52,575 bases of DNA from Acidobacteriaceae bacterium (GTDB lineage Bacteria > Acidobacteriota > Terriglobia > Terriglobales > Acidobacteriaceae), in assembly GCA_025360645.1 (NCBI GenBank), contig JANYBT010000140.1:1-52575 (forward strand). Reading direction: 5' to 3'. The number at the start of each line of letters is the position of its first letter. Within the stretch, counting starts at the first letter, position 1. Below, in pieces: positions 5,201 to 25,666 of this stretch. The notes beneath the pieces were generated by a model. It was not told the DNA's origin and did not search any database. It worked only from the letters and a program-made list of their open reading frames with translations. Made by a program: the position numbers and the translations under genes.

Positions 5201-5471
5201 ACTGCGCCGTTCCCAGGGAGTGCCTCTGGAGGATGCTGTCGTGGATGCCGGGGCGGTGCGGTTTCGTCCCATGTTGCTGACAGCGGCGGCGGTGGTGGTG
5301 GGCGCGAGCGTGATATTGTTTGACCCTATTTTCCAGGGACTGGCGATCTCGCTGATGGCGGGAGAGGTGGCTTCCACTGTGCTGTCTCGCATGGCAGTAC
5401 CAGTGCTCTATTTTCTGAGCCAGCGAAGTCGGGACAGAATTAGGGACAAGGGCCAGCCCGTGGCAGCATAG
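2232..5471 (+). CDS. RND family efflux transporter, inner membrane pump
   Basis: Proton-driven AcrB/CzcA-superfamily pump of 1079 residues, the usual length. Start ATG 2232 overlaps the adaptor stop by one base; a GTG one codon earlier is possible. A first membrane segment near residues 20-40 is followed by the porter domain ([20 protein letters not shown]), then a block of membrane segments containing [14 protein letters not shown] (418 onward) with the paired proton-relay Asp residues D422 and D423. A second porter domain and membrane block follow. In the TM10 motif [12 protein letters not shown] an Arg (R980) sits where AcrB has its relay Lys. Neighbours show a complete pump operon. The substrate cannot be read from the sequence. 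Confidence 0.93.
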
Positions 5472-5513
5472 ACTGACGAGAAATTGGCGCTTTGGGGGGC
5501 CGGAGGTGAGACA

Positions 5514-5702
5514 CTGAATGTAGAACGCTATGTTCGATTAGTGGCCGGAGTCTTTGTTCTGGCGTCACTGGCACTCGGATACTGGGTCAGTCCGTACTGG
5601 TATCTGTTTACGGCATTCGTAGGGTTGAACTTGTTCCAGTCGGCACTGACAAACTGGTGCCCCATGATTACTATCCTGCGCAAGCTGGGTGCGCGAGGGT
5701 AG
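5514..5702 (+). CDS. DUF2892 (YgaP-like transmembrane) protein, probable CTG start
   Basis: Small inner membrane protein of about 62 residues resembling the C-terminal membrane domain of YgaP-type rhodaneses (DUF2892). It begins NVERYVRLVAGVFVLASLAL, has a second hydrophobic segment, and ends in the typical NWCPMITILRKLG with a single Cys. No ATG or GTG is suitably placed in frame. A strong Shine-Dalgarno GGAGG at 5502-5506 lies 7 bases before a CTG at 5514, exactly where family members usually begin, so CTG is proposed as the start; an in-frame TTG at 5484 is the alternative. It lies 42 bases after the pump gene and is probably cotranscribed. Its role in efflux or sulfur handling is inference only. 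Confidence 0.8.
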   Translation: MNVERYVRLVAGVFVLASLALGYWVSPYWYLFTAFVGLNLFQSALTNWCPMITILRKLGARG

Positions 5703-22679: not shown

Positions 22680-22709
22680 GAGGGTAGGCCGGGCGCCAGA
22701 CGTCTTCCA

Positions 22710-23180
22710 TTAGCGGTCCACAAACTTGGCGAACATCCGGTGGGGATCAATGGCGATGAACAAGCCCTGGCTGCGCGCCAGGGGTTCGCCCTTCTGGTTT
22801 AGAATCTCGGCCATGTTGATGTGCTTGCGGCCGCGGACCCGCACCTCGCGCGACTCCACCCGCAGCGCCTGGTTGAGCGGTACCGGCTTCAGGTAGTCCA
22901 CTGTGATCTGCGAGGTCAGCGCCACCACGTGCCGCAGCTTGTTCACTTTGCCCATGGCCTCGTCCAGAATGGTCGCGATGATGCCGCCATGACAGTGCCC
23001 GGGAGGGCCTGTATAGCGCTTGCCCAGCCGAAAGCGGCACACAAAGCAATCGCGTTCTTTATCGTAGGTAAAGCGCAGTCGCATTCCCTCGGAATTGTTT
23101 TTGCCGCAAGCAAAACAGTAGTTCTTTTGCAGGCGAACGTAGCGGGTGTCGTGACCGGAGGCTGATTTGGCTTTTGGCAT
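22710..23180 (-). CDS. Hot-dog fold thioesterase (PaaI-like)
   Basis: 156-residue acyl-CoA thioesterase-like protein. The hot-dog signature HGGIIATILDEAMGKVNKLR lies in the middle, followed by the strands TSQITVDYLKPVPLNQALRV and REVRVRGRKHINMAEIL. The N-terminus adds a CFACGKNNSEGMRLRF segment, the short Cys pair seen in a subgroup of these proteins. The substrate is unknown. It precedes rdgB. Start ATG 23180 gives MPKAKSASGHD; no strong Shine-Dalgarno is visible, so the exact start is less sure than the family. The gap in front of it contains a minus-strand terminator hairpin. Confidence 0.85.
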   Translation of the reverse strand: MPKAKSASGHDTRYVRLQKNYCFACGKNNSEGMRLRFTYDKERDCFVCRFRLGKRYTGPPGHCHGGIIATILDEAMGKVNKLRHVVALTSQITVDYLKPVPLNQALRVESREVRVRGRKHINMAEILNQKGEPLARSQGLFIAIDPHRMFAKFVDR

Positions 23181-23240
23181 GGGACGAACCCGATTCTATC
23201 GTGGGAATGGGAGTGGGGCGAGCCGGGAACTTCGGGCAAC

Positions 23241-23276
23241 GAAAAAAATGCCCGCGATCCTTGCGGATCGCGGGGC
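23241..23276 (-). terminator. Minus-strand terminator with no gene in front of it
   Basis: A 10-bp perfect stem CCCGCGATCC / GGATCGCGGG with a TTGC loop (23251-23274) is followed on the minus strand by a T7 run (complement of 23242-23248). No minus-strand gene ends here; the thioesterase gene starts 61 bases further on. It may end an unannotated RNA or act as an attenuator for the thioesterase-rdgB transcript. Confidence 0.7.
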
Positions 23277-23655
23277 AAATCTGAACAGCCCTCCCCAGAA
23301 CTGCTCCGGGAAAGAATACGACCGGAACCCGCGTGGGTAAATACCCTCTCAGTGGGGGACAAATGGCACTTTTTAGCCACCGGAGAGCCGAAAATAACAC
23401 TTGTCCATAGTCCAAATTGTTGTTATAGTTCGGACACTCACATTTCGGATGTTCGAGACGATTCGTGATTGTGAGACGGTAATGAAGAGAGGGTGGCCGC
23501 CCTCAATTTCTTCAGGATACCAACTGCCGGACAGGCCAACTGGCGCAACTCTCTACCTTTAGAGTGCATAGTTTTGCACCATAGGGGTCAGTCGCACGGC
23601 ACGCGTATCTTTGTAAGCTATTGATTACAAATGATATATGTGTCAACCCTGGGTG

Positions 23656-23671
23656 TGGCTGAAGGATTGCT
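23656..23671 (+). promoter_or_regulatory. Sigma-54 (-24/-12) promoter of the PEP-CTERM gene
   Basis: TGGCTGAAGGATTGCT matches the sigma-54 consensus TGGCAC-N5-TTGCW with the invariant GG at 23657-23658 and GC at 23669-23670, exactly 12 bases apart. Transcription would start near 23682, leaving a 5' leader of about 93 bases before the PEP-CTERM start. PEP-CTERM genes are known in other bacteria to be controlled by sigma-54 with the PrsK/PrsR two-component system. Confidence 0.72.
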
Positions 23672-23774
23672 TTAGCATTGGTGGGCGTGTGTATCTGCAC
23701 TGCGGTTCCCGGTATGGGGATCGAAAACTGAAACTTCGGATGTTCAGCGCGAGAATTTGGTTCAGGAGGGTAGT

Positions 23775-24371
23775 ATGAGGCGAGTAGTATTGCTTGTGCT
23801 GTTGGCACTAGCGGTTCCTATGCTAGCAAGCGCCAGCAGCTTTGACATCACTAACCTGGGAGGTAGCCTTACCGGGAGCTCGAGCGGGCTCACCGTGGGA
23901 AGCTCCACCATGATCCAGTACGGCGGGATTATCGGAAGCAACTTGGGAAGCGTCGGCTTCACCACAGGGGCTCTGACGTCCGGCAGTCTGGCAATGGGCG
24001 GATCTTTCGCGGCAGGCGGCTCCTTCACCATCAGCGGCTGCGGTTGCAGCGGAGTGCCTTCGGGAACGATCTTCACCGGAAGCTTTGACGGTCCAGTGAC
24101 TTGGCAGTTGGTTACCTTGGCGGATGGAACCCATAACTACATTCTTACGGGCACCATCAGCGGCACTTGGTACACCGGTGCTACAGTTGCGGGAGCGGTC
24201 ACCCAGCTCACCATCAACACTGGAAAGGGCTTTTTCAACGGCTCGACCGGCATTTCCAGCGGCGACATCGCCATCAACGGAGTCGTGCCTGAACCGGGCA
24301 CCCTCGGTTTGCTGGGAACTGGACTGGCAGGTATTGCCGGACTGGTTCGTCGGAAGCTGAAAGTTAGCTAG
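23775..24371 (+). CDS. PEP-CTERM sorting domain protein
   Basis: 198-residue exported protein. A signal peptide (MRRVVLLVLLALAVPMLASA) is followed by a Gly/Ser/Thr-rich, beta-prone body with one Cys pair (SGCGCSG). The C-terminus is a textbook PEP-CTERM sorting signal: VPEPGTLGLLGTG, a short hydrophobic span and the basic RRKLK. Such proteins are processed by exosortase (EpsH/XrtA) and sorted to the surface or exopolysaccharide. Start ATG 23775 has GGAGG 5 bases upstream. The promoter is of the sigma-54 type. The body has no recognised domain. The gene stands alone between two gaps, with its own terminator. Confidence 0.92.
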   Translation: MRRVVLLVLLALAVPMLASASSFDITNLGGSLTGSSSGLTVGSSTMIQYGGIIGSNLGSVGFTTGALTSGSLAMGGSFAAGGSFTISGCGCSGVPSGTIFTGSFDGPVTWQLVTLADGTHNYILTGTISGTWYTGATVAGAVTQLTINTGKGFFNGSTGISSGDIAINGVVPEPGTLGLLGTGLAGIAGLVRRKLKVS

Positions 24372-24391
24372 CTTTTTTCGAAAAAGGCAGA

Positions 24392-24420
24392 AGCCCCGCC
24401 GCTCGGCGGGGCTTTTCCTT
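24392..24420 (+). terminator. Rho-independent terminator of the PEP-CTERM gene
   Basis: AAGCCCCGCC / GGCGGGGCTT stem with a GCTC loop (24392-24415), followed by TTCCTTT. It lies 20 bases after the stop. A small AT-rich dyad CTTTTTTCGAAAAAG just before it may add termination from the other side. Confidence 0.88.
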
Positions 24421-24460
24421 TGTCCCCGACTTCTTTCTTCCTTCCTTCCTTCCAGGGCCT

Positions 24461-24516
24461 AAAAAAACCGGGAGCCCTGGACTCGCCCCGTCTCTGGCAA
24501 GTCCGGTCTCCCGGTT
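24461..24516 (-). terminator. Long minus-strand terminator-like hairpin without an upstream gene
   Basis: AACCGGGAG (24466-24474) pairs with CTCCCGGTT (24508-24516); a second block TGGACT / AGTCC inside extends the stem. On the minus strand it is followed by a T7 run (complement of 24461-24467). No minus-strand coding gene lies between here and pdxS. Confidence 0.65.
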
Positions 24517-24745
24517 GGTCTGTTCCAGCTCGATGGGCTTCCTCTAGCTCACCCCGGTCGCGATCAGTTTTCACTTGCGTTAATTTTTATCCGCACGGAC
24601 TGACGATTCCTCAACTCTCCCGATTTACCGACCTGGCAGAACCTGCGCAATCCCGCGCGCCGATGTAAACTAATCTTTCAGGGCGAAGGTTGCAATAGCC
24701 GTAACCATCGGCCTACTTTTTCACGAAACAGAAAAGAGCCTTGTT

Positions 24746-25666
24746 ATGTCACAGAATAATGGGAGTTCCAGCAGCCTTCGTCTAAAAACCGGGTTGGCGG
24801 AAATGCTGAAGGGCGGGGTCATCATGGATGTCACCAACGCCGAGCAAGCTGAGATTGCCGAAAAGGCGGGCGCCGTGGCTGTGATGGCGCTGGAGCGGGT
24901 TCCGGCCCAGATTCGCGCCGAGGGCGGGGTGGCCCGTATGGCGTCGCCCAAGAAGATTCGCGAGATCATGGCAACCGTCTCCATTCCAGTTATGGCGAAG
25001 TGCCGCATCGGACATTTTGCCGAAGCCCAGATATTGCAGGAACTCGGCGTGGACTACATTGACGAGTCGGAAGTCCTGACCCCCGCCGATGAAGCCCACC
25101 ATGTGGATAAGCATGCCTTCAAGACTCCATTTGTGTGCGGCGCCCGCAATCTGGGCGAGGCCCTGCGCCGCATCGCCGAAGGCGCCTGCTTGATCCGCAC
25201 CAAGGGCGAGGCTGGTACGGGCGACGTTGTGCATGCGGTAAAGCACATGCGCCAGATTGTGAGTGAGATGCGCGGACTCACCATCCTCAGCGAGCAGGAG
25301 TTGTACGCTCGCGCCAAAGACCTGCAGGCGCCTTATGAGTTGGTCAGCATGGTCGCGAGGGCAGGGAAGTTGCCGGTGCCCAATTTCTCGGCTGGAGGAA
25401 TTGCTACGCCAGCCGACGCAGCGCTGGTGATGCAACTCGGGGCCGAGGCCGTTTTCGTGGGCTCAGGCATCTTCATGACAGACTCAAGCACATTTGCGGA
25501 ACCCGCGGAAGCCGCCAAACGCGCTAAGGCCATAGTTCTCGCCGCCACTCACTTCCGCGATCCCAAAGTCCTGCTCGAAGTCAGTGCAGACCTTGCGGGG
25601 GCAATGAAGGGACTGGCCGTCGCCGGTCTGGACGAAGCGCACTTGCTGCAAACACGGGGATGGTAG
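24746..25666 (+). CDS. pdxS: Pyridoxal 5'-phosphate synthase subunit PdxS
   Basis: 306-residue synthase subunit of the DXP-independent vitamin B6 pathway, forming PLP from ribose 5-phosphate, glyceraldehyde 3-phosphate and ammonia. The TIM-barrel signatures include [20 protein letters not shown] with D28, [20 protein letters not shown], and the Schiff-base Lys K85 in [10 protein letters not shown]; the second Lys lies in [11 protein letters not shown]. Length and motifs are fully conserved. Its ammonia-supplying partner PdxT is normally adjacent, but here a broken DUF2971 gene and spacer of 970 bases separate them. The ATG start is well supported. Confidence 0.97.

What the first reader, a model, noticed from the sequence alone, without database searches (positions are those of the whole stretch)
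23656..23775. Sigma-54 promoter in front of the PEP-CTERM gene
TGGCTGAAGGATTGCT has correct GG and GC at 12-base spacing, about 104 bases before the start codon. Sigma-54 control of PEP-CTERM genes through PrsK/PrsR is known in proteobacteria; finding the same logic here would link this lone surface protein to an exosortase and exopolysaccharide regulon elsewhere in the genome.
Basis: partly seen in the sequence, partly recalled or inferred. Interest (0 to 1): 0.55.

Follow-up and report, generated by a model that had tools for sequence, protein, structure and literature searches.

The report
Acidobacterial sigma-54 surface-protein regulon promoter
The sequence in front of this surface-protein gene looks like a real, conserved sigma-54 promoter with its own activator site, and it points to a biofilm-type gene network in soil Acidobacteria that resembles, but is not, the one known from proteobacteria.

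Summary
Alone it is weak: 34 matches of that score, itself included, lie in the window. All three recur before PEP-CTERM genes of related Acidobacteriota. In 77 such promoters, 31 have a sigma-54 site (shuffle mean 1.8), 57 the palindrome (13.4), and 11 the pair at 84-93 bp (0.02). The genome has rpoN and one exosortase beside an exopolysaccharide operon; no PrsR or PrsK passes its model cut-off. The best candidate activators are enhancer-binding proteins with the recognition helix ISY(K/R)ALLYK: a response regulator with its kinase, and a receiver-less partner beside a PilZ gene. The palindrome lies upstream of such genes in 37 of 72 loci (2 of 63 in a downstream control interval). A third paralogue, lacking the sigma-54-contacting GAFTGA loop in 8 of 8 copies, precedes the export gene at the exosortase locus. 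The sigma-54/exosortase link is supported; PrsK/PrsR is not. This genome's other two PEP-CTERM genes lack the promoter. Nothing was tested experimentally.

The parts
23560..23583 (+). Upstream activator site (UAS): TAGA-GTGCATAGTTTTGCAC-CATA; palindrome core 23564-23579; family consensus TGTGCAAAnnTTTGCACA
   Evidence: Only 0-1-mismatch copy in the window; 22.8 bits, best PWM hit in the window; 21.6 bits with its own genome left out of training
23614..23626 (+). IHF-like site TAAGCTATTGATT between UAS and -24 (reverse complement of WATCAANNNNTTR, consensus recalled)
   Evidence: 9/9 match by eye; this orientation is enriched in UAS-sigma54 spacers: 12 of 42 with at least 8/9 against a shuffle mean of 1.7
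23656..23671 (+). Sigma-54 -24/-12 promoter element
   Evidence: pair with a palindrome at 83-92 bp in 14 of 19 places
23682..23682 (+). Predicted transcription start (inferred from -12 spacing; not mapped)
   Evidence: inference
23764..23769 (+). Shine-Dalgarno AGGAGG
23775..24371 (+). PEP-CTERM protein gene, 198 aa, with signal-peptide-like start MRRVVLLVLLALAVPMLASA
   Evidence: homologues
24285..24353 (+). PEP-CTERM sorting signal
   Evidence: PF07589 match

Best explanation
The gene is transcribed by sigma-54 RNA polymerase from 23656-23671. A hexameric enhancer-binding protein (EBP) binds the palindrome at 23564-23579, about 118 to 103 bp upstream of the predicted start; an IHF/HU-type protein bends the DNA at 23614-23626 so that the EBP reaches the polymerase and opens it by ATP hydrolysis. 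The EBP is most likely one or both of two proteins encoded together on contig C109 (a response-regulator EBP with its histidine kinase, and a receiver-less EBP beside a PilZ gene), both with the Fis-type helix ISY(K/R)ALLYK. The product would be exported, processed by the single exosortase (C122) and deposited with exopolysaccharide. Shown by comparison: promoter, palindrome, spacing, gene associations. Inferred: which EBP binds, DNA bending, transcription start, role of the kinase and of PilZ/c-di-GMP, fate of the protein.
For: Footprint in homologues found by protein search. Set not chosen by promoter motif, 77 PEP-CTERM promoters: 31 with sigma-54 site (shuffle mean 1.8, max 6 in 200 shuffles), UAS 57 (13.4), pair at 84-93 bp 11 (0.02), pair at 60-70 bp 5 (0.025); in the 63 outside the homologue set 22, 43, 3 and 5. 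Leave-one-genome-out PWM at 16 bits: 33 of 77 against 0 of 117 other gene upstreams. EBP link: the PWM, trained only on PEP-CTERM promoters, finds a site of 15 bits in the interval upstream of the ALLYK EBP gene in 37 of 72 loci with full flank; control intervals downstream 2 of 63 and 0 of 56, further upstream 2 of 55; 70 sites in 80 loci against 7 in one block shuffle. EBP (E<=1e-20) in 28 of 35 genomes with PEP-CTERM hits and 7 of 26 without, Fisher p 5.9e-5. Linkage: in G025 kinase, both EBPs, PilZ and two PEP-CTERM genes with UAS plus sigma-54 (10/11 and 7/11) at 89-90 bp lie within 7 kb; in G005 a homologue of the window gene directly follows the EBP; in G181 the EBP is divergent from a UAS/sigma-54-driven export gene. 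The three EBP types split from 14 other own EBPs and a PrsR at 100/99. rpoN. HU/IHF-family proteins: three, best 111 bits to IHF-beta, cut-off 115.
Against: No expression or binding data. In this genome the C128 gene has no sigma-54 site of score 8 and only a weak palindrome (11.3 bits), and C111 has no UAS of 10 bits and only a 7/11 sigma-54-like site just before its open frame. The own C109 locus has a 16.9-bit UAS but only a 6/11 sigma-54-like site towards PilZ, 146 bp away. The own exosortase operon has no UAS of 15 bits. 46 of 77 PEP-CTERM promoters have no sigma-54 site by the criterion used and 20 no palindrome. 35 of 72 EBP loci have no site in the interval, and the strict palindrome was not in excess over those loci. 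Seven of 26 genomes without a Pfam PEP-CTERM hit have the EBP; 7 of 35 with one lack it at that threshold.
Confidence: 0.8

Rival explanations
1. The -24/-12 match is a coincidence and the gene is read from a housekeeping promoter.
For: 34 sites of that score in the window, itself included; one sigma-70-like site at 23401-23429 (+), 9 of 12.
Against: The sigma-70-like site is within the shuffle expectation (1 found, mean 0.7) and about 350 bp upstream. Conservation of element, palindrome and spacing is not explained.
Confidence: 0.05
2. The known PrsK/PrsR system controls the gene.
For: Same logic: sigma-54, upstream activator motif, response-regulator EBP, exosortase/EPS association (PMC1569441, section 7 read).
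Against: No protein of the genome passes TIGR02915 or TIGR02916. A Desulfovibrio-plasmid PrsR (585 bits) has the helix GVSRPTFYDLLRKHG, not ISYKALLYK, and falls on the other side of a 100/99 split. The published motif 1 ends in TTTACA and was reported only in Proteobacteria; here TGTGCAAAnnTTTGCACA.
Confidence: 0.04
3. The palindrome is real but is bound by some other regulator (another EBP or a non-EBP factor); the ALLYK EBPs are targets, not the activator.
For: Sites next to the EBP genes would also be expected if those genes were merely regulon members; 14 further EBP frames exist.
Against: The EBP genes are repeatedly linked to the promoters, co-occur with PEP-CTERM genes, and three paralogues share one recognition helix while the exosortase-side intergenic site is a variant of the same palindrome.
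Confidence: 0.11

Closest known systems
PrsK/PrsR/PrsT regulatory system of proteobacterial PEP-CTERM genes (Haft 2006, PMC1569441; section 7 and passages read)
   Same: Sigma-54 motif before mostly single-gene PEP-CTERM units, a 17-nt activator motif upstream (spacer 32-92 nt, average 62.8; here about 70-76 nt in most pairs), a Fis-type EBP response regulator with a kinase, exopolysaccharide/exosortase context
   Different: Different activator motif and recognition helix, EBP below the PrsR cut-off, kinase below the PrsK cut-off, extra receiver-less EBP and PilZ gene; that paper reports its motif only in Proteobacteria and expects further motifs and regulators
DVUA0057, predicted PEP-CTERM regulator of Desulfovibrio vulgaris (PMC3333781 and PMC4641369, passages read)
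   Same: Response-regulator EBP enriched at its five predicted PEP-CTERM targets in DAP-chip; targets with sigma-54 promoters
   Different: The exosortase-linked EBP of strain RCH1, which I take to be its counterpart (not checked), passes the PrsR model at 585 bits and has another helix
RpoN-dependent pepA of Aquincola tertiaricarbonis (PMC9850573, passages read)
   Same: PEP-CTERM gene with a mapped start behind TGGCAC/CTGCTT, transcription dependent on rpoN1
   Different: Proteobacterial, with a PrsK/PrsR gene cluster
EBPs lacking GAFTGA, such as Caulobacter NtrC (recalled; PMC10274813 seen only in the search listing, which counts the words 'lacks GAFTGA' in it)
   Same: Fis-type AAA+ regulator without the sigma-54-contact loop, like the exosortase-linked paralogue here
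   Different: Different family and gene context; no function known here

Membership tests
Sigma-54 (enhancer-dependent) promoter | -24 GG and -12 GC at fixed spacing | tested here: met
   8 of 11 consensus positions
Sigma-54 (enhancer-dependent) promoter | rpoN and GAFTGA-bearing activators in the genome | tested here: met
   PF04552 at 196 bits; a GAFTGA-type motif in 13 of 17 EBP frames
Sigma-54 (enhancer-dependent) promoter | Upstream activator site at a conserved distance | tested here: met
Sigma-54 (enhancer-dependent) promoter | RpoN-dependent transcript with a start 12 nt past the GC | not testable with these tools
   no RNA data
PrsK/PrsR PEP-CTERM regulatory system | Response regulator above the TIGR02915 cut-off (502.6 bits) | tested here: not met
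   best 419 bits (NtrX-like); candidate 352.5 bits
PrsK/PrsR PEP-CTERM regulatory system | Kinase above the TIGR02916 cut-off (300 bits) | tested here: not met
   best 100.2 bits
PrsK/PrsR PEP-CTERM regulatory system | Motif 1 ending in TTTACA upstream | tested here: not met
   motif wording; no TTTACA in the 594 bp upstream of the gene (by eye), element here TGTGCAAAnnTTTGCACA. The motif 1 logo itself was not seen
PEP-CTERM/exosortase sorting system | PEP-CTERM signal on the protein | tested here: met
   PF07589 29.1 bits, cut-off 20.7
PEP-CTERM/exosortase sorting system | Exosortase in the genome | tested here: met
   PF09721 246.9 bits; TIGR02602 196.5 bits, cut-off 105.55; XrtA 200.1, just under its 208 cut-off
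PEP-CTERM/exosortase sorting system | Processing of this protein by that exosortase | not testable with these tools
   needs protein work
IHF-assisted sigma-54 promoter | IHF site between activator site and -24 | tested here: met
   9/9 match in the window; one orientation enriched set-wide
IHF-assisted sigma-54 promoter | IHF encoded in the genome | tested here: inconclusive
   three HU/IHF-family proteins; best 111 bits to IHF-beta with cut-off 115

The most novel reading that the evidence does not exclude
Acidobacteriota run a PEP-CTERM/exopolysaccharide regulon through a circuit that arose separately from PrsK/PrsR: a kinase-driven response-regulator EBP and a receiver-less EBP, encoded around a PilZ gene that itself has the UAS/sigma-54 promoter in three relatives, act on the palindrome TGTGCAAAnnTTTGCACA; a third paralogue that has lost the sigma-54-contact loop sits at the exosortase/export operon and acts on a variant palindrome (GGGAAAAnnTTTTCCC) as a sigma-54-blind competitor or repressor.
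Probability: 0.4. Interest if true: 0.68.

Novelty: new variant of a known kind. Interest (0 to 1): 0.58.

Why it matters
In 2006 the PEP-CTERM promoter motif and PrsK/PrsR were reported only in Proteobacteria, with the remark that further motifs and regulators remained to be found. This gives one candidate: an operator, a spacing rule and likely activators for a common group of soil bacteria. I found no paper on such control there: PEP-CTERM with Acidobacteri* is in 4 papers of the held library, judged by title and abstract start, plus passages of one. It makes the control of exosortase cargo directly testable by one binding assay and one reporter.

Tried and rejected
Chance match: rejected on comparative counts. 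PrsR at C7: NtrX-like, with an NtrY-like kinase beside it (by eye). TTTGTAA-N8-TTACAAA (23610-23631) as activator site: it overlaps the IHF-like site, and a search for either half upstream of 18 homologue loci found it only in the window gene. RNA leader: no Rfam family at 22700-24800 and no unusual fold of 23682-23777 (z 0.48). Strict GTGCA-N6-TGCAC near EBP genes: not enriched overall (30 observed, 37 block-shuffled); the PWM showed the enrichment, so the EBP-side sites are a degenerate form. My first count there, 40 of 72, was wrong (three of the 40 loci lack full flank); one search gives 37 of 72. One search used a wrong -24/-12 spacing (8 hits in the own genome, window site missed); one search repeated it with the right spacing and a looser palindrome (30 hits, control 14). 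One search gave hits in 140 of 150 genomes; its reversed-pattern control does not match codon structure and many hits are coding, so I did not use that tally. Its listing was cut. I fetched 27 listed hits by the rule TTTGCA (two G050 hits fitting it were already held; one, G019:C505, I overlooked) and 6 more by eye (a 34th region was no pattern hit): 15 of 33 lie in open frames of 150 codons or more; of the other 18, 8 precede PEP-CTERM genes, 3 PilZ, 2 kelch-like by eye, 5 other or none. Of the 30 hits given as loci, 3 precede PEP-CTERM genes, 1 a homologue without the tail in that frame, 2 EPS genes; the other 24 were not classed. Dropped rows: 7 of 84 PEP-CTERM entries had no start by the script, three of them (L050, L070, L144) because I entered hit positions by estimate; L050 has the palindrome without a good sigma-54 site and L070 has neither; L144 had come from the pattern search. 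Five homologue positions (L045, L046, L048, L049, L069) were also estimates and gave sensible starts; some script-chosen starts are doubtful (L159, L286, L301, L320). Set composition: rows of family f1's cut list plus homologues.

Full report
1. Observation. The element TGGCTGAAGGATTGCTT lies at 23656-23672 with GG and GC correctly placed, 104 bases from the ATG at 23775. The gene codes for a 198-aa PEP-CTERM protein behind a 594-bp gap to the divergent upstream gene. Alone, the element is unremarkable: 34 sites of that score, itself included, lie on both strands of the window.

2. What makes it convincing. A protein search in 100 relatives (own genome included) matched 25. I examined 19 places. 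In 14 of them, the window included, a palindrome like GTGCATAGTTTTGCAC (23564-23579) lies 83-92 bp before a TGG...GC element. The quality varies: five of the 14 palindromes have two mismatches (L045, L046, L049, L051, L071) and five sigma-54 elements score only 7 of 11 (L048, L053-L056). The five others: L070 and L072 have no such pair, L050 has the palindrome without a good sigma-54 site, L052 and L057 have a sigma-54 site (9 and 10 of 11) with the palindrome at 121 and 164 bp.

3. Test not chosen by promoter motif. I collected PEP-CTERM genes found by the protein family (family f1 rows of a cut list) plus homologues; 77 of 84 entries gave a start codon. A sigma-54 site of score 8 or more at -40 to -150 occurs in 31 (200 dinucleotide shuffles: mean 1.8, max 6), the palindrome with two mismatches or fewer in 57 (mean 13.4, max 25), the pair at 84-93 bp in 11 (0.02) and at 60-70 bp, about two helical turns shorter, in 5 (0.025). 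In the 63 outside the homologue set the numbers are 22, 43, 3 and 5. The refined motif is TGTGCAAAnnTTTGCACA. With each genome left out of training in turn, 33 of 77 promoters score 16 bits or more, against 0 of 117 other gene upstreams; at 14 bits it is 42 against 5.

4. Spacer. Between palindrome and -24 the window has TAAGCTATTGATT (23614-23626), a full match to the IHF consensus (recalled) in one orientation. In 42 rows with both elements (part chosen through one search's pattern; L053/L295 are one gene and L056 counts twice) 12 have at least 8 of 9 positions (shuffle mean 1.7); the other orientation is not enriched (3 against 1.6). A variant TAAGTnnYTGAWW, noticed in the same data, is stronger (9 of 42 at 10/11, mean 0.3). 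Three HU/IHF-family proteins are in the genome.

5. Regulator. The genome has rpoN and 17 EBP frames. Two on contig C109 and one on C122 share the recognition helix ISY(K/R)ALLYK. C109 encodes a response-regulator EBP (receiver domain; GAFTGA), a histidine kinase, a PilZ protein and a receiver-less EBP (GAFTGA). The same four genes stand together in G013, G005, G025, and in G147 and G174 (kinase by eye; PilZ). In G147, G174 and G007 the PilZ gene follows palindrome plus sigma-54-type element (the G174 element matches only 6 of 11 positions). G007's response regulator has a diverged helix. In G181 the receiver-less EBP is divergent from an export-gene operon with the same promoter; in G025 two PEP-CTERM genes with the promoter (sigma-54 scores 10 and 7) follow it, and in G005 a homologue of the window gene follows it.

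6. Separate test of the EBP link. The PWM, trained only on PEP-CTERM promoters, finds a site of 15 bits or more 850-2200 bp before the helix, that is upstream of the EBP gene, in 37 of 72 loci with full flank (40 of all 80). Control intervals of equal length: downstream 2 of 63 and 0 of 56, further upstream 2 of 55. There are 70 sites in all against 7 in one block shuffle, in peaks near -1050 and -1640 and one just after the gene (12 loci). The strict consensus did not show an overall excess. Strong EBP hits occur in 28 of 35 genomes with PEP-CTERM hits and 7 of 26 without (p 5.9e-5); related genomes are not independent.

7. Exosortase side. The single exosortase is divergent from a third ALLYK protein followed by export (Wza-like), Wzc-like and XrtA-type ATPase genes (export and ATPase score just under their NCBIfam cut-offs). 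In eight genomes examined (own and G005, G006, G013, G023, G026, G027, G078) this protein lacks GAFTGA (8 of 8; G078 has the helix ISYKSLLYK) and stands before the export gene; the exosortase is on its other side in 6, and in G023 and G078 the stretch ends at a contig end. Own Walker B reads YLSEV where the GAFTGA-bearing paralogues read FLDEI or LLDEI. Five of six intergenic regions examined hold a variant palindrome, GGGAAAAnnTTTTCCC-like (9.6-12.5 bits; none in G005). A sigma-54-blind competitor is my inference.

8. Known or not. PrsK/PrsR membership fails: cut-offs not met; a Desulfovibrio PrsR has another helix; in a tree of EBP domains the response-regulator, receiver-less and exosortase-linked types separate from 14 other own EBPs plus that PrsR with 100/99 support, each type forming one group (receiver-less 89/89; unrooted, one PrsR only). 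It works like PrsK/PrsR but is not shown to be it. The published motif 1, its spacing and its restriction to Proteobacteria are from section 7 of PMC1569441. Literature searches; no listed title or abstract start concerns an acidobacterial PEP-CTERM regulator.

9. Against. Two other PEP-CTERM genes of this genome (C111, C128) lack the promoter; own C109 lacks a good sigma-54 match; 46 of 77 promoters have no sigma-54 site by my criterion; no wet data; the promoters come from related genomes and are not fully independent; the sigma-54 and IHF consensus strings are recalled.

Noticed in passing
L392 (own C128:28000-37000) 5317-5601, - strand: A 94-aa frame that looks like a Fis-type helix domain alone (ISYRGLLYK), by a second set of export/Wzc-like/ATPase genes and near the C128 PEP-CTERM gene; a possible DNA-binding-only regulator.
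   Followed up: no
L190 (own C23:22000-30000) around 2881: Perfect palindrome GTGCAATGTTTTGCAC (21.1 bits) in a gap between large open frames, without a sigma-54 site at the usual distance.
   Followed up: partly
Exosortase/EBP intergenic regions: L074 13600-13900 and loci L383, L385, L387, L388: Variant palindrome around GGGAAAAnnTTTTCCC; hybrids of both half-site types lie upstream of some EBP genes.
   Followed up: partly
own C32:14041-14490, - strand (L080): Relative of the window protein (72% over 75 residues), cut by the contig end, ending without a PEP-CTERM tail.
   Followed up: partly
window 23430-23454 and 23721-23745: A 25-nt direct repeat, 80% identical, in the intergenic region and in the predicted leader.
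   Followed up: no
window 23251-23274: Perfect 10-bp hairpin with a T run on the - strand, upstream of the start of the divergent thioesterase-like gene (named by eye).
   Followed up: no
L173 and L179 (G013): Two large secreted-looking proteins (kelch-like by eye) behind the same palindrome plus sigma-54 element in one genome; the stretch shown bore no PEP-CTERM tail.
   Followed up: no
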